In this document: one piece after another, positions 5,863 through 53,400 of the stretch
How positions within the stretch are numbered: the first letter of the stretch is position 1
How the letters are laid out: each line of letters opens with the position of its first letter
Assembly: GCF_026151205.1 (NCBI RefSeq)
Contig: NC_087072.1
Coordinates: 14,112,169-14,176,168 of the forward strand
Source of the DNA: Bolinopsis microptera
Lineage: Eukaryota > Ctenophora > Tentaculata > Lobata > Bolinopsidae
Reading direction: 5' to 3'
DNA length: 64,000 nucleotides
Notes under the pieces: generated by a model
Told to the model about the DNA's origin: nothing
The model's input: only the letters and a program-made list of their open reading frames with translations
Databases searched by the model: none
Position numbers and translations under genes: made by a program

Positions 5863-6500
5863 ACTAATTAGTATAATAACACCGTTACAGTGTACAGGTT
5901 TAATTAGTATAATAACACCGTTACAGTGTACAGGTTTAATTAGTATAATAACACCGTTACAGTGTACAGGTTTAATTAGTATAATAACACCGTTACAGTG
6001 TACAGGTTTAATTAGTATAATAACACCGTTACAGTGTACAGGTTTAATTAGTATAATTACACCGTTACAGTGTACAGGGTTAATTAGTAAAATTACACCG
6101 TTACAGTGTACAGGGTTAATTAGTATAATTACACCGTTACAGTGTACAGGGTTAATTAGTATAATTACACCGTTACAGTGTACAGGGTTAATTAGTATAA
6201 TTACACCGTTACAGTGTACAGGGTTAATTAGTATAATTACATTGTTACAGTGTACAGGGTTAATTAGTAAAATTACACCGTTACAGTGTACAGGGTTAAT
6301 TAGTATAATTACACCGTTACAGTGTACAGGTTTAATTAGTATAATTACACCGTTACAGTGTACAGGGTTAATTAGTATAATTACATCGTTACAGTGTACA
6401 GGGTTAATTAGTATAATTACACTGTTACACTGTACAGGGTTAATTAGTATAATTACACCGTTACAGTGTACAGGGTTAATTAGTATAATTAACAATAACA
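5863..6500. repeat. 36-bp minisatellite, array 1 (about 17 copies)
   Basis: The unit reads TTAATTAGTATAATTACACC plus a 16-base remainder (GTTACAGTGTACAGGG). Copies are head to tail with no spacers and vary at a few sites (ACAGGT/ACAGGG, ATAATA/ATAATT). Because 36 is divisible by three and the unit lacks stops, open frames appear on both strands; they are by-products of the repeat. Confidence 0.97.
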
Positions 6501-7046
6501 AGTAGTCTCCATTCTACTCTACAACTGCAACTCCTGGGCTGCACCACTAGCTTCGTTGAATGAACTTGATATTGCTCATCGCAAACACCTCCGAAGAATC
6601 CTCAACATCAGATGGCCTACTGGGGTTATTTCTAATGAGGCACTCTATGCTCGTTGTTATGTCACTCCCTTGTCTGTGAGAGTCTCTAAGTTTCGATGGA
6701 GAATGTTAGGACATATCTTAAGAGGACAGGAAGACTCACCAGCATACACCTCTATGTTATTTGCTATAAATTCTGATATTTTTATGGAAGGGAGACGGGG
6801 TAGACCATGTTTAAACTTATTAGATGTTATTAGAAAAGACTTGACTAGTAGAAATCTTGATATTAGACTTAAGAATTTGACTGATTTCGAAGACCTTAGA
6901 TTTTTAGCTTTAGATAGGGAGGAGTGGAAGAAGTTAGAAGATGGTTGATGTTTTGTTTTCTTTTTTATGCGTTTTGATATCTATAAGGTGCCTAGGATGC
7001 TCTTTTAAAGAGATATTTCGTACTTTGAAAGATTTTCTACTACTAC
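6501..7046 (+). mobile_element. LINE fragment (RT C-terminal region) inside the minisatellite
   Basis: The frame at 6556-6948 reads LDIAHRKHLRRILNIRWP, SKFRWRMLGHILRG and RRGRPCLNLLDVIRKDL, the typical end of a LINE ORF2 protein after the reverse transcriptase (the RWRxLGHxLR block). The closest relative in the window is the fragment at 20.84-21.18 kb, which shares RSRWRMLGHVLRG. The fragment splits the minisatellite, so insertion came after at least part of the expansion. Only the last quarter of an ORF2 is present. Confidence 0.8.
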
Positions 7047-7607
7047 TACACCGTTACAGTGTACAGGGTTAATTAGTATAATTACACCGTTACAGGGTAC
7101 ATGGTTAATTAGTATAATTACACCGTTACAGTGTACAGGGTTAATTAGTATAATAACACCGTTACAGTGTACAGGGTTAATTAGTATAATTACACCGTTA
7201 CAGTGTACAGGGTTAATTAGTATAATTAAACCGTTACAGTGTACAGGTTTAATTAGTATAATAACACCGTTACAGTGTACAGGTTTAATTAGTAAAATTA
7301 CACCGTTACAGTGTACAGGGTTAATTAGTATAATAACACCGTTACAGTGTACAGGGTTAATTAGTATAATTACACCGTTACAGTGTACAGGGTTAATTAG
7401 TATAATTACACCGTTACAGTGTACAGGGTTAATTAGTATAATTACACCGTTACAGTGTACAGGGTTAATTAGTATAATTACACCGTTACAGTGTACAGGG
7501 TTAATTAGTATAATTACACCGTTACAGTGTATAGGGTTAATTAGTATAATTACACCGTTACAGTGTACAGGGTTAATTAGTATAATTACACCGTTACAGG
7601 GTTAATT
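7047..7607. repeat. 36-bp minisatellite, array 2 (about 15 copies)
   Basis: Same unit and orientation as 5863-6500, continuing on the far side of the inserted LINE fragment. One copy carries ACAGGGTACATGG instead of the consensus, and the array ends in a truncated unit before the unique part resumes with TTGACCCACCGG. Confidence 0.97.
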
Positions 7608-11300: not shown

Positions 11301-14300
11301 TGGTGAACTAAAAAATATTAGGAGTATTAATATGATTTACAATTTATAAATAGGACTGCCTCATGCATGAAGAACATAAGGTCATATTGCGTGGGTGGCT
11401 CGGTGCTAACCACTCACAACACCATCAACAGGTTTACAACTCATGGATCTGGTATTGGAATAATTGTCGAATATAATAATATCATTACGAAGAAGCCACG
11501 CCACTAGCTGACATATAAAGGAGAAATTTGAAATACTTGTACCACGTTTTAGAGAATTTAGGATTTGTTTCACTGTCAACTACACATGAAATTGCTTAGA
11601 GCTTCTACATGTAATATACATTACATACATTAATACATATTACAAACTGAATACTATACATGTAATATATCACGGGAACCGTGCGAACAACCGTAGATAG
11701 CAGATTCAACTTTCACTGTCGTTATGTTAGTGAACATTAAAAATAATTGACGAAACGTAACTCAACAAACTCACCGATCCATACAAGCAAGGAATTTTCT
11801 GTCGCCCAGAGAGCCACAATTGCCGTACCATTCACCCTTCCTGTTGAACCGTTCATAGCACACATTATCACTAACTGCCACACCTTCACCCCACAAACTA
11901 GTACACTGAGTACCCAGAGTCTGACAGCTGCCATAGTTACAAGACCCGCTGCCTTCCCCACACAGCGTACCGTCTTGGGTGTACCGGTTTGTTGGACACT
12001 GACATATTTTATTAATGTTAGGACGCTTTTTAAAACGGATCATCTAACTTAGAATTAGAAAAATTGTTTATATCATAACGAACAGATTACAGAATTACGT
12101 TGTTGATAATACACTCAAACAGTTTGATTTTAACTGAACTAAACCTGAGAGTTTGTTCCGGTGCAGAACTCCACGAGATCGCACTCTGAAGAGGCGGGGC
12201 GGCACATCCTTTTGTAGCTTACAAACTGGCATTCTTCACAGCAGTCACCAGAGTAACACTGGAGAGGGTGATGTAGTAAGTTGTAGAACAATCACTCTAA
12301 CCTTTATTTACCAACCAACGAATATACCTGAATATTACAACTACGTTGTAGATAAATATATATTTGTACATACCTTTGCTCCGGGTTTCAGTTTACAGCC
12401 GATCGGCTCGCAGCAAGGGTCACTGGCAATACATTCCTGAAATGGAGAGCATATTTAGCAGTCTAGAAAAAGCAAGAATTCTTTAAAAGTTTAAATTTGC
12501 ATGTTTTATGAAAATTGTAATCCGAATTAGAATACTCTAACACTCTCCTCTCACTTACCTCCTCAGTCCCACAGTCACACTCCTCAGTCCTCACCCTCCT
12601 CTCACTTACCTCCTCAGTCCCACAGTCACACTCCTCTCCCTCCTCTCACTTACCTCCTCGGTCCCACAGTCACACTCCTCACCCTCCTCTCACTTACCTC
12701 CTCGGTCCCACAGTCACACTCCTCACCCTCCTCTCACTTACCTCCTCAGTCCCACAGTCACACTCCTCTCCCTCCTCTCACTTACCTCCTCAGTCCCACA
12801 GTCACACTCCTCACCCTCCTCTCACTTACCTCCTCAGTCTCACAGTCACACTCCTCACCCTCCTCCCACTTACCTCCTCAGTCCCACAGTCACACTCCTC
12901 ACCCTCTTCCACAAATCCGTTCCCGCACACCGGGTCCCCGTAAAGAGTTTTGGGCTGGTTGTTGAGACACGTTCCAGTAAAGGAATCCAGGACTAGCTGA
13001 CTACAGTTACTAAAGACGGAGGCTGCTTTACCCATTGAATCGGACATCAAACAGTCCCAGCTGATTTCTGGTGGGCACACACATTCATCTGATAAGATTA
13101 AGGAGTTAAAATCAGTTTTACCCAGATAATCAGCTAAGTATTTACTTTTTCTACAGAGCTAATTTTCTCCGTGAAATTATCTGATAGCAGCGGAAGATAT
13201 TTTTATGATATAAGGTATTTTATTGTGTATTCGTCACGAATTATGAATTAAATTAGGAATTATAGTAACTGTTACAGAGAAGACAGCTCTATTTCATGAC
13301 ACAGATGTTTCAATTTTTCTAAAACACAATTCTGCTAAAGAAGGTATCTGTGCTCTCACCACTGTCATGGTACATTCCAAAGTTATGACCCATCTCGTGA
13401 GCTATGACAGAAGCGTAGAAGCCTACTGACTTCCTGGAGTTGAAGTTGACGCTTGCACAGCTGCTCCGACACATAGTGTCAACTCCAGCGTATCCTATCA
13501 CTGCTCCGTCAAAATCTACTGCCCTGAAACAATTAACATGTTATATTTAATCATTTATGCGTATCTGTATAATAGTATAATACACTGATAATGTAGTTAT
13601 GAATAATATAGTTATAATAATTTATTCGACTCGATTTATCAGACAACCTAACATGACTTGTCTGGAAGGAGACAATTAACATAAAAAAGATACTGATCAC
13701 AACATACTGATCACTGATACGAAACAAGAGCTGATGAACAGGATACTGATAATCAAGATACTGAAGATAAGAACGATAAGAAACTCACGTCATGAGTATA
13801 CTGACATCATGTTGTTTATACACGTTAAGAAGCTTCTCCTGTCTGTACATTGTAAAGTTTCTCAGAACAGCGGAGTAACTGGGGGTGACTGTTATCATAT
13901 CTGCTACTCTCCAGTTCTCCATCCCGACCAGGGCTATTCGTACACCGTACTTCTTGTAGATCTGCAAATATTTTATTAGTTATAAATAATATCATATTAA
14001 GGACCCATGTACATTTCTAAGCATTGATTTCGACGTTTCACTGTATCCAATGAAAAGATGTCGCTCTAGTGTCAGCTGTCTGTGTAAAGACAGTCTTAAT
14101 AACGTCAAGTCTCGCTTTAACTGTCTAGCGGTAATGATATTTGACGGAATACAACCAACTTGTGATTAATCTCCATTTAGATCCAGGCTTTTTAAGAGCA
14201 TCTGGATCGATTAATCACGTAACAGCATGAGAAACTCCGGCACTATTTACATCTTCAAACAAGAATCACTGTATTATTCGGACAGTGCTTTTGTACCTTT

Positions 14301-17300
14301 TGTGTGATGTTACTTCTGAAATTGACTACTCTACTCATCTTCAGGACTAGAGTTGAAGCAGGTTTGCTAATAAATGATTTAGTTACCTGATAACCAAATA
14401 ATCAATGTAGGGAATATATAATAATCATGGTACTCCGATGACTGGAAAGAGGGAATAAGAAATCTACACAATGTTTAACATAACTTCACAAATTTTAATC
14501 ATGTAGAGCCATTCTATTATTTTATAACATATTATTTTCAGATTCCAGTTTTAGACTTGTAAAAAGCAGCGGAGAATATATGGATATAATGAGTGAAAAA
14601 CTAGGTCTGTTGCTTTACCAAGAGGCAAAAGTTTGCGACATTAACCACACTTTTAACATCAAGTCTGCTAATGCTATCTGCAAAGAGATGGGCTATGCTA
14701 GAGCTATAGACTGGAATGTGGACCATATATGGGATGTGCAATACGAGTTTGAAACGAAAATAGGAACAGTCCAATGTGAGACTGATGACTGGTCCACGTG
14801 TAGCTACGATATACTATATAAGTGTGGATATGAAAATGACGTCTTCCTTAGTTGCGAAACACCAGGTTATGAGCCAAATATTAGGTATTCTTAGAGAGGA
14901 AACGAGAGATATGGTATGCGTGTTTTAAGTTTCGTTTCGCACAACTTAAAATTTTAACTTTGGAAGTATGTCCTGCCATGTTAGCATTTTCAAACATTAA
15001 TTATTTTCAGATTTCAGTTTCAAACTCGTGAACAGCGGCGGAGAACAAATGGATATGGTTATAAATCCAGGTCTGCTGCTTTACCAAGGGAGAAAAGTTT
15101 GCGACTATTACCACACTTTTAACATCAAGTCTGCTAATGCTATCTGCAAAGAGATGGGCTATGCTAGAGCTATAGACTGGAATGTGGGCCATATATGGGA
15201 TGTGCAATACGAGTTTGAAACGAAAATAGGAAAAGTCCAATGTGAGACTGATGAGTGGTTCACATGTAGTTACGATATTGTAGCAGATTGTGGATATGAA
15301 AATGACGTATTTCTCGGTTGTGACATATTCCCATCATGTCCACCAGGCAAGTTCCGGTTTTACGAACATTGTGAGTCTTGTCACCCTAACACCTACAAGG
15401 CAGTCGAAGGGAGCCAAACCTCCTGTACAGATTGTCCTGATGCATCCACTTCAACTGCAGGTGCAGCATATTGCTCCTGTCAGATAGGAATGTATTGGAA
15501 TGGAGTAGCATGTAAGAAGTGCCCACAAGGCTCCGTCAGCCGTGAAGGATCTAGAGAATGCACAGAATGTCCTTCTGACTCAATTGCTTCAGACGAAGGT
15601 TCATCCTGTAGTTGCGGAGCAGGGGAGATATGGAACTGGGAGGGAGAAGATGGGTCGTGTAAGTTATGTCCTTCAAACACCTTTAAAAACCAGTATGTAC
15701 AGACCTGTACCAACTGCCCAGACTTCACGACATCTGTTGCAGGCTCCGAACACTGTTCTTGCAAGGCAGGTATGTTCTGGAACAAGGCAAGCTGCATAAT
15801 CTGCCCGGAAATCTCTGCTAGCAATAGAGGTGCTCTAAAGTGCACTGAATGTCCAGCAGGCTCGTCTCCTGAAAACAATAGTACCTCCTGCAGCTGCCCC
15901 GCTGGGACTGTGTGGAAATGGGATGAAGAAGGTGGTAGTTCCTGTAAACCATGTCCAACAGGCACATACAGGAACAACCAGATGGAACATTGTGAAAGTT
16001 GCCCCAATCTATCCTCCTCTATAATCGGGTCTGAGAGTTGCTCCTGCTTACCTGGAACGTACATGGACCGTGATGTGGGATTGTGTATGATATGCCCTCT
16101 AGGAACAACATCCAGGACAGGGTCTGAGATCTGCTCTTGTCCAGCCGGAATGTTCTGGAACGAGAACAGGTGTTATAACTGTGCCAAAAATGAGGCTAGC
16201 CAAGCAGGTTCCCTCCAGTGTTTCCCATGTCCCGGTGATTATACGACATTAAACAACAGTACTTTTTGCATATGTCCAGCAGGCTTGGAGTGGACTTGGG
16301 ATGATTACAAGTCTGGTTCATGCAGGCTCTGTCCATGGGGCTCTTATAAAACTGAAGAAATGGAGTCTTGCGAAGCTTGTCCAAAAGGAAAATTTCCAGA
16401 AGTAGGTTCTGAGCATTGTATTTGTCCTGCAGGCAAATTCTGGAACAATACAAGCTGTCAAGAATGTGGTGTGAGCTCTGCCAGCCAAGAAGGTGCTTTG
16501 CACTGTTCATCGTGTCCGTTAGAATCTGCTTCATTAAACGAAGGGTCAGAGTGTACATGTCCAGTAGGTATGAAATGGAGTTGGGATGAGCAATATCTCG
16601 GTACTTGTAAGCCCTGTCCACCAGGATTCTACAAGAGTAAGCAGATGACAGCCTGCTCTACTTGTCCTCTGGGAACAACATCTGCTGTGGGCACTGACCA
16701 CTGTTCTTGTAAAGCAGGTATGTTCTGGAACCAGACTCGATGTGAGAACTGCGAAACGGGTTCTGTAAGTCAAGAAGGTGCAGTTCACTGTGAGGCTTGC
16801 CCCCCAGATTCAATCTCAAACACAGGAAATAGGGTTTGTAACTGTCTAGGTGACGCAACATGGAGTTGGGATGAGCTTGGGGTGGGTTCTTGTAACCCTC
16901 TCTCAAACGGCATCACGCAGAATCTTCAACAGAACCTTCAGCAAACTCTACCATTGGACCTGACTTCTGTTGAAATACACGCTTCCATCTCAGGTCTCCT
17001 GATGGTACTCAATGTTATCCTAGCTACACTTCTCATTCTAGAGAGGAGGAAAGCTAAGAGGTGTGAAGCCGAGGTTGCATATGATGCTGTTGCTGGAAGA
17101 GTTCAAATAATTAAGGTTGAAGTGAACAAAGACCAGAATAGTAAAATACAACACCCAAAAGAAGATCTGCCAGGAAAAGAAGCATCTCTTGATATAGACG
17201 GTGATGTTGCAAATGATACTGTTGCTGCAGGTGTTCAAATAATTGAGGTAGAAGTGAACGATGACCAGAATAGTACAATACAACACCCAAAAGAAGATCT

Positions 17301-20300
17301 GCCAGGAAAAGAAGCATCTCTTGATATAGACGGTGATGTTGCAAATGATACTGTTGCTGAAGGTGTTCAAATAATTGAGGTAAAAGTGAACGATGACCAG
17401 AATAGTACAATACAACACCCAAAAGAAGATTTGCAAGGAAAAGAGGCATGCTGTGATAAATACTGTGATGTCCAGGGCTCACACGAAACGGAGAACATTT
17501 ACGAAACAATGGACATATAGTAACCATGTTACTGGAATACTTTGATGCGAATATTTACTTTATCCTTTCTACAATTTAAGTTTGCTATTTGATTCTTTGA
17601 CACTTTCCATCACACGACGATTGATCATTATTCATTATTCATGTACTCAAAATTCTGTCCCTTGAAGTTATAATATTCCCGGAACCACCTGTTCTATAAC
17701 TTTGTGTAATCCAAACGAACATGATAATCTCAAACCTCGTCTATTTTAGCGACAGTAACGAGAACGAACATGATAATCTCAAACCTCGTCTATTTTTGCG
17801 ACAGTAGCGATAACGAACATGATAATCTCAAACCTCGTCTATTTTAGCGACAGTAGCAAGAACGAACTCTTCCACCTCCTCGATCTTAGTGTCGAACTGC
17901 TGCCAAAAGGATCTGTCAGTCACCACTACCACTTCTACTGTCTTGTGTGTTGCTATTATTGGGTCAGTGGACAGACCTCTTTTGTATAATGGGTGATAAG
18001 GGACGGGTCGGGAAATGCTGTGGTTTAACTCTATACCGTTATACTCTGAGGAAAGTATTACGTTAGATCCTGATGCGATTATAGCTACATTTGATGGCTA
18101 AGCAAAACTATACAGTATTTATTTGAGAAAAGTACACTGTCAACTGATAAGATATATGATGTTGTAGACATACCGCCGGTAGCTATTTCGTAAGGGTTGG
18201 GGAGGTCATTATCAGAGAACATTACATAGGTTTCCTTATCATACACCACATACCATGTGTTATTCACATCAGTTAAACTACCTCTGAAATATATTAAGCA
18301 AGAGTTCAGGAAATTTTATTGCAACGATTATATCGACTTGATTTTCATATTCCCTGAAATGTGAATTAATTTAAATCGGAAAAAAAAAGAAAAACTTCCC
18401 CACTGCACAATAAATATAAAACCGATTAATTATATCGAGAAACAGATGTGACACGACCGTTTGCCAGTTACCTGATTCTTCCAGAACAAGTACTGAGCAT
18501 AACAAGATATTGGGGCTTATCCCTTACGGTACCCCGGTAGTGACAGTCAGTCTTCAACTCATGTTGTATTCGTGTGTTGTGAGTTACAGTGTGCCTCTTA
18601 GCGCCGGCTATCACTGCTTCCCTGGTAGATTTGGAGGTAAAATATGAGATAATAACGGTTAGGTTATCATTGTAATCGGTGACTTAATTTAATACCAGGC
18701 ACCACATTTCAATGTAAATTGAACATCTCGTCATATTATGTATCATCATTGGTGATTCAACTTACGAATATTTGCGAATAGTTCACTACTCAATTACCTA
18801 GAATACTCACTAATCGATTACCTAGAATCCTTATTATTCAGTACTCATAACTCACTACAACTACTTTATCGATAGTCTAGCTTATTTAGCTATATCCGTA
18901 TATAATGTATCCGATATAATATATTATATACTGGCTCGCGCGCATGCAATTCAATTATTTAATTAATAAGAACACTCGTGTTGCGCGACAAGTCACATCT
19001 CGTTTACAGCGCGCGTTACAGTATCCTAAATAAGTAGACCCTTTCGAAGCATGTGGGAATCAGCGATGAGGCGATTATTGTCAACAGCTCAAGATTTAGG
19101 AATCAGGAAGTCAAATGGAAATACACCAGATCAGCATGTTCTACTCGCTCTAAACAGCCGCCAGGAAGCAGGTCTCGGTACATAAAGGGATTTATCTTAT
19201 CCCGCAATGTGCAGTAAGTGTATGGATGTTTAACCAATGACAAATAAGTTATGTCCAAGTCAAGAATTAGCCAATTCCTTTCTGTCTTATTCATTGATTG
19301 TCACAAATACTAGGTTTAATTACGGAGATATTCAATTTGCATTATAGCAACGTATAGCAGCCATGTGCTAATGTGCGGGTATGTGGTGGTCACCCGTTGT
19401 GAAAATATCCACTTCAGTAAGAGCTGCTTCCTTGACCAAAATAAACATTTTAACAACTGCTAATGTTCAATTACCTGTTGATTCTGGCGTCTAAAATTAG
19501 TCTGCCGAGAGATTGGGAGTGTAACTTACTTCTAAACTTGACGCGTCCTGAAAATCCATTACTTTGTTCTCAACTCAAAACGTCATGATCACGTCTTGTT
19601 ATATAGAATTGTATTTCTGGATATTTGTAATGATAAAACAGGAAACTAAACTATGCATACCAGTATATCATTGCCAACACGAGATTTAAGTAAATAAAAT
19701 AAGTAAAACTTACCCTAGTGTCGGCTGATAACTGTATAACTTCTCTTGTTTTAGGTATATCTGAAACATAGTCAATTATTCGGCAAAAATGTACACTCAG
19801 TTTTAACTTTTGAGTATGAGAGTGTTACAATGATGTCATCCTATCATAGAGTACTTATCATGCAGAATGCTAACATTCACACATCTACATACCTTCCTTA
19901 AATACATTCCGGTACCTTACTAATATAATATATAATGCAGATTTGGGACACATTATAAACTACTCGCTTTTTCTATGCTTGTCGCTTTTGTCATGTCACT
20001 TAAAATATACGGAGATATGTTTCACATTTACATAACGTTTAATTTGATTTTTCCCAGCGAATGCCACCATGACATTATCATATATTATGCACTAGAAATT
20101 AAGCATAAATACAGCTTATCATATTAACAAGTTTGTAAAAGTTAAAAAGGTCTTAGAGTTAAACTTTGTGTTTAACAAATACAAGAAAGCTTGGAACCAT
20201 AAGATCCCTCTGAGCAAGAGGCTACTGTTGTATGAGGCTCTGGTAGTATCCGTTTTAATGTACAATTCATCTTGCTGGGCTGCCCTTAAATCAGTGTTGG

Positions 20301-50400: not shown

Positions 50401-53400
50401 GAAAGATCTCACATTCTATATGAACAATTATCGGCTTGTGTCCAGCGAAGGGATTACCATGTATTGAAGGCATTCCTCCCCTTAAAGTTTGAGTATGTTC
50501 TTTCAATTAAACTGTCTGACCTTCAAGTTAAGTTATATACGAAATACCTTGACAAGGCTAAGGCTTCAGGTGGAATGATGTCAAAGCTGTTTGAGTGTTA
50601 TCAGACTTTGAAGAAAGTTTGGACTCATCCTTGGCTCCTTGAGATAGATGCTCTGAAAAACGAGAAGGACAGCATAGAGGACTTTATAACCGACAAGGAG
50701 ACATCAGAGGAAAGTTGGGAAGCCAGTAGTGATGATTCTGATTTTCGTCCAAACAAGAAAAAGAAAAATAACAAGAATGGCGATGATGAGGAAGAAGGTA
50801 AAAAGGACCCAGAAAAGCAAAAAGAAGCTAAACCAGAAAATATGACAGGTGCTCCAGACCCAACAATGGTATCAGCCATTGCAGACACAATCATACCAAA
50901 TTCTGGTGGAGTCGACTACAACTGGTTCAAAGGAGAGATGACCGACAAAGATGAGAAAATGTTGGAACATAGTGGAAAGTTGTTGGTCACTCTGGAAATA
51001 CTGGACAAAGCTTCTCAGAAAGGAGACAAAGTCTTACTTTTCAGTCAGAGTCTTCTAGCACTAGATTTTCTTGAAACCTCTATAAATAGAGTGGGATGGT
51101 TGAAGGGGAGAGATTACTTCCGGATGGATGGCTCCACAAAGACTGCCCACCGTCAATCTTTTCAGAAACAGTTCAATGACAAGTCAAACAAACGATGCAG
51201 ATTATTCCTTATCTCCACTAAGGCTGGAGGATTGGGTAAGATATTTTGGCTTTCGTCCTTCGATTCTGTGCCCTATTTAATACTGTCCGATTTTTGAGTT
51301 GCATCTTATCCCATACTTCCACTATGATCTAAAATTTAACCTTATTAAAATGATGACTTTCCTCAGGTATCAACCTCGTCTCAGCTAACAGAATTATTCT
51401 GTTTGACATGTCTTGGAACCCGAGTGACGACACTCAGTCACTGTTCAGAGCCTACAGATACGGACAACAGAAGAATGTTTATGTCTACAGATTGGTTGCC
51501 AGAGGTACAATGGAAGAGAAGATATACGATAGGCAGGTTAGGACCAGCTTGGATTTATAAATTTGGACTTTATCGAGTTGTGGGAAATTGTTTTTCCTAC
51601 ATAATTTGAAGCTTAAGCTGTATATTACATTATATGTATTATAGGGGGGGTGTCACGTCCGTCTATGTCCGCTTGTCTCATAGAATCCAAAAAGGACTGG
51701 ACAGGACAGGACAGGACAGGGCATAGACGGACATAGGCGGACATAGACGGACATATATGGACATAGACGGACTTTGGCGGACATAGACGGACATGTACGG
51801 ACTTTGGCGGACATTAGCGGACATTAATGGACACCTAAATTGTTAAACAAAATGTTCAATTTTTGCTGTTATAGGGTGATCATGTTTTTTGTCCGTTCGA
51901 TACCGTATATTTTCAAAACGGACAAAAAATAGAGCGGACAAAAATGGACAAAAACGGACAAAAATGGAAATTCTTCACCCTCCTCCTCCTGGGTCTTCCT
52001 GATCTTCCTGAGTCCTCTTCCTCCTCAGTCCTCCTCCTACTCCTCCTCCTCGTCCTCAGTCCTCCTCATCAGTCCTCAACAGTCCTCCTCCTCCCCAGTC
52101 CTCCTCCTCCTCCTGAGTCCTCCTCCTGGGTCCTCCTCCTCCTCTTCATCCTCCTCCTCTTCCTCCTCAGTCCTCCTCAGTCCTCCTCCTCATCCTTCTC
52201 CTCAGTCCTCCATCCTCCTCCTCAGTCCCCCCCCAGTCCCCCTCCTCCTCCTCCTATTCAGTTCTCATCCTCCTCCTCGGCCTCAGTCCTCCTCAGTCCT
52301 CCTCCTCCTGAGTCCTCCTCCTCCTCCTCCTCCTCCTCCTCCTCCTCCTCCTCCTCCCTCTCAGTCATCCTCCTCAGCCATCCTCCTCAGTCCTCCTCAG
52401 TCATCCTCCTCAGCCATCCTCCTCAGCCATCCTCCTCAGTCCTCATCCTCCTCAGCCATCCTCCTCAGCCATCCTCTTCAGCCATCCTCCTCAGCCATCC
52501 TCCTCAGTACTCTTCAGTCCTCCTCCTTCTCAGTCCTCCTGAGTCCTCCTCCTCCTCCTCCTGGGTCCTCCTCCTGGGTCCTCCTCCTGGGTCTTCCTGA
52601 TCCTCCCCAGTCCTCTTCCTCCTCCCCTCCTCAGTCCTCCTCCTACTCCTCCTCCTCGTCCTCATCAGTCCTCAACAGTCCTCCTCCTCCTCCCCAGTCC
52701 TCTTTTGTACAAAATTATAATACATAGAAGTTGCGAAAAATTCTCAAAATGTTTGTCCGCTAATGTCCACCAATGTCCGCCAATGTCCGTCCGAGTCCGC
52801 CAATGTCCCAAAAAACACGTCCGTTGTCTCATAGAATCCAAAAAGGACAGGACATAGACGGACGTGCACCCCCCCCCCCCCCCCCCCCCCCCCCATTAAA
52901 TATACAATATGTACATTTAAATACTCAATACATATCTATCTACATTCTACTAAATCATAATTATTCAAGTTTTTGTACTTAACTTCTGGCTTAATTGTTC
53001 AATCTATCATGTTTTAAAGCACTAACTTTTATCTCTCATCATATTTTAGGTATACAAGGAGTCTCTATCAAGTAGAGTGGTGGACGAGAAGCAGATTACT
53101 CGTTACTTCTCTGCTAATGATCTACAGACCTTGTTCGCTTTCGACCCCTCAGCCCAGACGTGTACTACATCAGTATTAGCCAATCACAATCCGCCAGCTG
53201 ACGATGTGTTAGCGTCCATCTTGGTTGACTTGGACCCTCCACTTGTCCTGGAATATCACGAGCACGACTCACTGCTTGAGCATAGGCCAGGTATGTACAG
53301 CTGGGTCGTGTTTAGTCAATTGTCAGTGGAACATTTTTTATATCTAGATAGCAAGTTATTGAGTTTTTCATATTTTTTTCCATTTGACGGTCGAACTTGT

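What the first reader, a model, noticed from the sequence alone, without database searches (positions are those of the whole stretch)
12550..12905. Eight tandem copies of an exon end plus splice donor in the ADAM gene
A 44-bp unit containing the last codons of exon 9 (ECDCGTEE) and its GTAAGTGAG donor is repeated eight times into the intron. Every copy offers a consensus donor, and 44 is not a multiple of three, so donor choice decides the reading frame of the disintegrin domain. Only every third copy would keep the frame. This could be a natural splice-site competition experiment or a polymorphic regulator of isoforms.
Basis: partly seen in the sequence, partly recalled or inferred. Interest (0 to 1): 0.75.

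Follow-up and report, generated by a model that had tools for sequence, protein, structure and literature searches.

The report
Tandem splice donors in ctenophore ADAM
In a comb-jelly gene for a membrane protease, the end of one exon and its splice site have been copied eight times in a row into the intron; only the first copy gives a whole protein, and similar arrays sit at exon edges of several unrelated genes in the same genome, which makes them a natural test of how cells choose between identical splice sites.

Summary
The repeat is real: window 12541-12906, minus strand, eight copies (six spacings of 44 bp, one of 51), each with the same GAG|GTAAGT donor. The host is an ADAM metalloprotease gene (Reprolysin, Disintegrin, ADAM_CR) of a ctenophore, probably Bolinopsis microptera. 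The isoform-switch idea is not supported by the sequence: only donor 1 is open into the next exons; donor 2 frameshifts to a stop, donors 3-8 meet the same TAA 15 codons after the normal exon end. It is not unique: of 15 donor arrays examined (of 16 listed), 9 are clear exon-end arrays, one with 44 copies; three loci show repeated acceptors. In 7 of 8 loci joined across the intron the first donor is the only one, of those tested, that keeps the protein. Best reading: minisatellites grown from exon edges, tolerated because the exon-nearest site is used, as exon definition predicts. The kind is known (human IFI6 minisatellite, Turri 1995, seen as a citation). No RNA or population data were available.

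The parts
13360..13523 (-). ADAM metalloprotease exon (HEMGHNFGMYHDS), donor GTGAGA at 13359
12874..13088 (-). ADAM exon ending ...CGNGFVEEGEECDCGTEE (215 nt with donor 1); its last 33 nt are the start of the array
12541..12906 (-). 44-bp tandem array, eight copies: 33 nt of exon end, the rest in the intron
12868..12876 (-). donor 1 GAG|GTAAGT (GT starts 12873), the only donor that keeps the protein open
12553..12832 (-). donors 2-8 (GT starts 12829, 12785, 12741, 12697, 12653, 12609, 12558), each GAG|GTAAGTGAG
12437..12873 (-). intron as spliced from donor 1 (437 nt); from donor 8 it would be 122 nt, like neighbouring introns of 115 and 146 nt
12374..12436 (-). next exon ECIASDPCCEPIGCKLKPGAK, acceptor TTTCAG|GAATGT
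12145..12258 (-). ADAM exon CYSGDCCEECQ...CTGTNSQ
11775..11998 (-). ADAM cysteine-rich exon

Best explanation
A minisatellite grew in place from the exon-intron junction of an ADAM gene, copying 33 nt of exon end and the first 11 nt of the intron into the intron (anatomy shown; slippage or short-homology repair as the cause is inferred). The intact protein requires the donor nearest the exon, donor 1, because every other donor leads to a stop (shown on sequence). The most likely rule is pairing across the exon (exon definition): the upstream acceptor pairs with the nearest downstream donor, and the seven further donors are decoys in the intron (inferred, no RNA seen). The same rule would explain why, where acceptors are repeated, the last one is the correct one. 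The array is then close to neutral and is one of a number of exon-edge minisatellites in this genome.
For: Only donor 1 of 8 is open and in frame. Joined there, the protein gives Pfam Disintegrin over the whole profile (75.6 bits, 1-75 of 75), Reprolysin and ADAM_CR, and runs through the junction in alignments to solved relatives with a two-residue gap just after it (the two alignments shown are to snake-venom members of the family). The paralogue L043 has the same spacing, CDCGSEE-DC. The homeobox gene joined at its first donor, QIQVQ|VWFQNRRAK, gives the whole Homeodomain (81.3 bits, 1-57 of 57). Of 8 loci with exon held on both sides the first donor is open in 8; it is the only open in-frame donor in 7: ADAM 1 of 8, L051 1 of 44, L052 1 of 43, L053 1 of 5, L059 1 of 4, L063 1 of 5 tested, L064 1 of 5 tested (misread L052 by two bases and counted the gene's own stop in L064, one search corrects both). 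At L063/L069 the last of 4 acceptors is the only open one. GT is intact in 8/8, 44/44, 43/43 and 35/35 copies at ADAM, L051, L052 and L065, and in 9/10 at L062, so decoys are not being eroded.
Against: No RNA reads: use of donor 1 is inferred from the protein. The four introns measured in this gene are short (115, 146, 271 and 437 nt), a size at which pairing across the intron is plausible and would favour the last donor. L065 is an exception: 8 of 36 donors in the stretch held stay open. The arrays were found with exact strong-donor words, so the sample is chosen. Pfam support is below cut-off or absent for L052, L053, L058, L059, L060 and L063. A paper on exon skipping ties the larger shift to exon definition to bilaterian ancestors, not to ctenophores (passages of PMC6142364).
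Confidence: 0.75

Rival explanations
1. Regulator of dosage or isoform: some transcripts use donors 2-8 and are truncated after the metalloprotease or decayed, so that copy number tunes ADAM output.
For: Donors 2-8 match donor 1 from -3 to +6 and in predicted U1 pairing; human IFI6 uses downstream repeat units as donors (a sentence of PMC4526556); at L065 in this genome donors 1-8 could be used in frame.
Against: Seven of eight ADAM donors give premature stops, so they cannot give an isoform with the disintegrin domain; I saw no trend in the decoys (no statistical test).
Confidence: 0.1
2. Intron gain by tandem duplication of an AGGT-bearing exon segment (Rogers model): the intron itself was born from the duplication.
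For: The paralogues L043 and L046 read through this place without an intron; the unit holds AGGT; multi-copy cases are described in fission yeast (passage of PMC4974935).
Against: The acceptor lies 104 nt outside the array; the best AG inside the array has 7 of 20 pyrimidines upstream against 14 of 20 for the acceptor. In the homeobox case the intron position is an old one (recalled), so arrays also arise at existing introns. Absence in paralogues can be intron loss.
Confidence: 0.08
3. The cluster of U1 binding sites has a function of its own, such as guarding the intron from early polyadenylation or slowing splicing.
For: Donor bases are slightly better kept than the rest of the unit at ADAM, L051 and L065 (means 1.0, 1.0, 0.994 against 0.975, 0.982, 0.970).
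Against: At L052 they are worse kept (0.951 against 0.988); the differences were not tested and young or homogenised arrays would look alike. The intron is short.
Confidence: 0.05
4. Assembly artefact: copies created or miscounted by the assembly.
For: The B. microptera genome was assembled from long reads with wtdbg (passage of PMC10232365); an exact 171-bp duplication in L053 looks suspicious.
Against: The copies carry different private and shared changes, and comparable arrays occur in other genes. The exact copy number stays uncertain.
Confidence: 0.03

Closest known systems
[quoted passage not shown] seen only as a title in reference lists and through one sentence of PMC4526556; the paper itself is not held)
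   Same: A minisatellite whose repeat units supply splice donors at an exon end.
   Different: In IFI6 two downstream units are reported to serve as donors, giving three messages; here each downstream donor gives a stop, the unit is 44 bp and not a multiple of three, and the arrangement recurs in other genes of the same genome.
Intron gain by tandem duplication of AGGT-containing exon segments (Rogers model; potato RdRp and fission yeast cases, passages of PMC4974935; Drosophila cases, passages of PMC2891723)
   Same: Tandem copies of an exon segment with AGGT; in fission yeast an intron that spans several duplicates.
   Different: Here the copies carry an existing exon-intron junction into an intron whose acceptor lies outside the array.
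Engineered duplicated donor region in C. elegans unc-73(az100) (passages of PMC8865678)
   Same: The same donor region placed twice in a row; the upstream original is used more than the downstream copy.
   Different: Two copies 18 bases apart, made in the laboratory; here natural arrays, 4 to 44 copies in those counted.

Membership tests
Minisatellite providing multiple splice donors (IFI6 kind) | Tandem repeat of minisatellite unit size spanning an exon-intron junction | tested here: met
   44-bp unit, eight copies, starting 33 nt inside the exon
Minisatellite providing multiple splice donors (IFI6 kind) | Each unit carries a consensus donor | tested here: met
   8 of 8 copies GAG|GTAAGT, predicted U1 pairing -11.5 to -11.8 kcal/mol
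Minisatellite providing multiple splice donors (IFI6 kind) | More than one donor used in messages | not testable with these tools
   no RNA reads; on sequence only donor 1 is productive
Minisatellite providing multiple splice donors (IFI6 kind) | Copy number varies between individuals | not testable with these tools
   one assembly; no second copy of the locus found
ADAM metalloprotease | Reprolysin domain with HExxHxxGxxHD, then disintegrin and cysteine-rich domains | tested here: met
   HEMGHNFGMYHD; Reprolysin 61.7, Disintegrin 75.6, ADAM_CR 52.1 bits, all above the curated cut-offs
Rogers-type intron gain by tandem duplication | Both splice sites of the intron come from the duplicated exon segment | tested here: not met
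   acceptor at 12437 lies 104 nt outside the array; AGs in the array have poor upstream tracts

The most novel reading that the evidence does not exclude
Exon edges of many genes in this ctenophore genome (dozens at least, perhaps a few hundred) carry minisatellites that multiply complete donors and acceptors, and the proteins survive only because splicing picks the outermost pair, first donor and last acceptor. That is the choice that exon definition predicts and the opposite of what intron definition predicts. The arrays would then show, in many genes at once, that exon definition operates in a lineage at the base of the animals and can pick one site out of more than 40 identical ones.
Probability: 0.45. 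Interest if true: 0.75.

Novelty: new member of a known kind. Interest (0 to 1): 0.52.

Why it matters
How the spliceosome chooses between equal donors is commonly studied with a few engineered copies. Here nature offers series of 4 to 44 copies in unrelated genes, in an animal lineage whose way of pairing splice sites is little studied. RNA data of the species, if they cover these genes, could answer it directly. It also shows that minisatellites can sit on the exon edges of conserved genes, a homeobox among them, without destroying the reading frame.

Tried and rejected
Homology of the array to dispersed purine/pyrimidine repeats: 54 other genome matches are 67-77% identical; of the seven other loci returned (L002-L008) I scanned two, L002 and L004, which are GAG-rich arrays without a 44-bp period; taken as composition. 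Splicing inside the array: its AGs lack pyrimidine tracts. A second acceptor (CTAG at 12463) would add 26 nt and shift the frame (read from the sequence). Selection to weaken decoys: no trend that I could defend; at L052 the +3 base varies (26 GTAAGT, 10 GTGAGT, 7 GTTAGT of 43). In one search the mean values printed for L062 are faulty (the donor sits at the unit's edge), only its counts were used.

Match counts as a measure of enrichment: rejected, because one long array gives dozens of matches. Triple-word matches, with the mirrored word in brackets: AGGTAAGT 1426 (12), CAGGTAAGT 450 (0), AGGTGAGT 1361 (197), AGTGAAGT 357 (575), GTAGATAG 178 (46), TTTTCAGG 369 (90). Arrays counted by eye in the rows shown, which are cut at about 100: AGGTAAGT 7 in the first 14.1 Mb of C1; AGGTGAGT 9 in the first 17.7 Mb (the L052 array is in both); controls AGTGAAGT 9 in at least 80 Mb and GTAGATAG 7 in at least 101 Mb (the length of C3 is a lower bound; all rows shown for GTAGATAG are plus-strand, so its rate may be up to twice as high). 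That is roughly a four- to seven-fold excess, on two control words. Against a simple extrapolation: CAGGTAAGT shows 9 arrays in a listing that runs from C1 to C10, about 190 Mb, fewer than a quarter of the C1 rate of AGGTAAGT would give, so I claim dozens at least, not a firm number. Three of the seven AGGTAAGT arrays on C1 (L054, L066, L055) show no exon.

Ten paper searches were made. In the rows listed none reports donor minisatellites in ctenophores; the closest were 'ctenophore, minisatellite' (2 papers), 'Mnemiopsis, splice sites, tandem repeats, introns' (1), 'ctenophore, exon definition, splice' (3) and 'splice donor, minisatellite, exon-intron boundary' (1). PMC12221973 (passages) has no mention of tandem repeats or minisatellites among the terms searched.

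Full report
Observation. On the minus strand at 12541-12906 there are eight copies of a 44-bp unit, GAGGAGTGTGACTGTGGGACTGAGGAGGTAAGTGAGAGGAGGGT (TRF: period 44, 8.2 copies, 94% matches, score 620). Copies begin at 12900, 12856, 12812, 12768, 12724, 12680, 12636 and 12585; the last spacing is 51 because of 7 extra bases. Each copy has the donor GAG|GTAAGT, GT starting at 12873, 12829, 12785, 12741, 12697, 12653, 12609 and 12558. These are all eight GAGGTAAGT 9-mers of the window on both strands. Donor 1 reads GTAAGTGGG, the other seven GTAAGTGAG. A search of the assembly found the array once; 54 weaker matches are 67-77% identical.

Host gene. The exons around it code for an ADAM: metalloprotease motif HEMGHNFGMYHD, disintegrin and cysteine-rich domains. 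Joined at donor 1, a 260-residue stretch gives Pfam Disintegrin 75.6 bits over the whole profile (1-75), Reprolysin 61.7 and ADAM_CR 52.1. In the two alignments printed to solved relatives (both snake-venom members of the family) the sequence runs through the junction, ECDCGTEEECIASDPCC, with a two-residue gap just after it. The paralogue L043 reads CDCGSEEDCPILDPCC without an intron there, and L046 also reads through.

Species. A glutamate-receptor reading frame of this genome (L050) has as best solved relative the Mnemiopsis leidyi receptor ML032222a (407.5 bits, 256-residue chain). The assembly has 264.65 Mb in 232 contigs; Bolinopsis microptera is reported with 13 chromosome-scale scaffolds and a genome of about 254 Mb (passages of PMC10232365). 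I take the genome to be a ctenophore, probably B. microptera; the species name is an inference.

What the donors would do. I joined the upstream exon at each donor to the next exons and translated. Donor 1: open. Donor 2 (+44): frameshift, stop 30 residues after the normal exon end. Donors 3-8: each reads GTEEVSGRRVRSVTVRLRR and stops at the TAA inside donor 2, 15 residues after the normal exon end. Donors 4, 7 and 8 keep the length modulo three, yet only donor 1 makes a disintegrin domain. Predicted pairing to U1 is -11.8 kcal/mol for donor 1 and -11.5 for the others, against -8.1, -8.2, -6.9 and -9.4 for four other donors of the gene. The intron is 437 nt from donor 1 and 122 nt from donor 8; the three others measured are 271, 115 and 146 nt.

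Not a single case. Three copies of AGGTAAGT spaced by 18-48 bases match 1426 times in the genome, the mirrored word 12 times. One array gives many matches, so I counted arrays by eye in the rows shown: 7 in the first 14.1 Mb of C1 for AGGTAAGT and 9 in the first 17.7 Mb for AGGTGAGT, against 9 in at least 80 Mb and 7 in at least 101 Mb for two permuted words. That is roughly four- to seven-fold. The single words differ much less: 10,758 AGGTAAGT against 7,965 mirrored. Two things weaken this: there are only two control words, whose matches (357 and 178, mirrors 575 and 46) vary widely; and CAGGTAAGT (450 matches, mirror 0) shows only 9 arrays in a listing that covers about 190 Mb. I therefore say dozens at least.

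Of 16 arrays listed (7; 9) I examined 15 (the 11-bp array at C8:17904441 was not fetched). Nine are clear exon-end arrays: ADAM; L051 (sushi repeats, 54 bp, 44 copies); L052 (Img2-like, 44 bp, 43 copies counted); L053 (dynein-like, 5 donors); L059 (unnamed, 41 bp, 4 donors); L060 (WD40-like, 29 bp; the next exon was not reached); L063 (Ig-like, 32 bp); L064 (homeobox, 35 bp); L065 (unnamed, 27 bp). L058 is probable: the array starts at a donor, the exon is only weakly recognised. L062 is on the acceptor side: its 37-bp unit ends TTATTTCAG and the last copy runs into an open frame. L061 is unclear. L054 and L066 (one dispersed 32-bp repeat) and L055 (22 bp) show no exon. Pfam is above the cut-off for ADAM, homeobox (81.3 bits, whole domain) and sushi (36.5 bits); below it for Img2 (32.4 of 34.4), WD40 and dynein AAA_9; no significant match for L058 and L059, and no match for the Ig-like piece. 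'Ig-like' and 'dynein-like' are my own reading of the sequence.

Which site preserves the protein. In the eight loci where I hold exon on both sides the first donor is open in all eight. It is the only open in-frame donor in ADAM (1 of 8), L051 (1 of 44), L052 (1 of 43), L053 (1 of 5), L059 (1 of 4), L063 (1 of the 5 tested) and L064 (1 of the 5 tested; donor 2 is open but out of frame). L065 is the exception: its 27-bp unit leaves donors 1-8 of the 36 held open, each adding nine residues (one search misplaced the L052 donor by two bases and counted the gene's own stop in L064, and one search corrects both). L069, the far end of the L063 intron, has four copies of acceptor plus exon start, of which only the last is open; L065 has three such copies before its exon; with L062 that makes three loci with repeated acceptors.

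Reading. First donor and last acceptor are the pair nearest to the exons. Pairing across the exon chooses these; pairing across the intron would choose the inner pair. The proteins therefore ask for what exon definition predicts. In C. elegans a duplicated donor region is used less than the upstream original (passages of PMC8865678), which fits. From memory, work on mammalian extracts reports a preference for the intron-proximal of two strong donors, which would go the other way; I did not see those papers. A survey of exon skipping finds somewhat more of it, and of frame-preserving kind, in Mnemiopsis than in unicellular relatives, but ties the large shift towards exon definition to bilaterian ancestors (passages of PMC6142364); the question for ctenophores is open.

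Origin. In ADAM the unit joins GTAAGTGAGAG of the intron to GAGGGTGAGGAG of the exon; the exon upstream and the intron after copy 8 share short AGAG and GAGG stretches. In L064 and L060 the exon holds TAAGTCCC or CAAGTGGGG, like the donor that follows. Short-homology slippage at the donor is a reasonable origin, but an inference. GT is intact in 8/8, 44/44, 43/43, 35/35 and 9/10 copies at ADAM, L051, L052, L065 and L062, which fits young or homogenised arrays without selection against decoys. Tandem repeats are common here: 8.6% of the window by TRF at score 50 or more and period 9 or more, in 39 merged arrays.

Known kind. The human IFI6 gene has a minisatellite that provides multiple donors (Turri 1995; title seen in the reference lists of PMC2572611, PMC4526556 and PMC2915984; one sentence of PMC4526556 says that two downstream repeat units serve as donors and give three messages). 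The ADAM array is a new member of that kind. What my searches did not find described is the recurrence of such arrays at exon edges within one genome and the need for the outermost site.

Limits. No RNA reads, no second individual, no orthologue; copy numbers depend on one assembly. Verdict: real and worth a quick RNA check; the isoform-switch idea is not supported.

Noticed in passing
window 51709-52894; also L002 and L004: A purine/pyrimidine-rich core beside short tandem repeats; in the window and in L002 the flanking arms (GGACAT... and ...TGTCCGCC) are inverse to each other, and rich cores match at many places of the genome. It looks like a dispersed non-autonomous element.
   Followed up: partly
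L065 (G000 C10:17037700-17039000): An exon with three acceptor copies before it and 33 exact AGGTAAGT donors after it in the stretch held; the 27-bp unit keeps the frame for donors 1-8 and would add nine-residue CCQC-containing repeats. Here alternative donors could really make isoforms.
   Followed up: partly
L069 (G000 C10:1537000-1538400): Four copies of acceptor plus exon start separated by GTGGTAACTAG repeats, in the same intron whose 5' end holds a donor array.
   Followed up: partly
L053:1860-2186: An exact 171-bp in-frame duplication inside a dynein-like exon, directly before its donor array; real or an assembly error.
   Followed up: no
L054 and L066: A 32-bp donor-bearing repeat (GAGGTAAGTACCTGAGTAAAGAGCGCTATCAT) at two distant places of C1 with similar flanks and no exon: a dispersed repeat family.
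   Followed up: no
G000 C1:401054-401945: An AGGTGAGT array with 34-bp unit (CCCCAGATACACTGTCAGGAGAGAG|GTGAGT) about 27 kb from the L051 sushi array and similar to its exon end: perhaps a second array in the same or a related gene.
   Followed up: no
window 15001-17520, plus strand: An 839-residue open frame (stop to stop), cysteine-rich, with a 132-bp repeat of three copies at 17074-17471.
   Followed up: no
window 5865-7599: A 36-bp minisatellite of about 48 copies.
   Followed up: no
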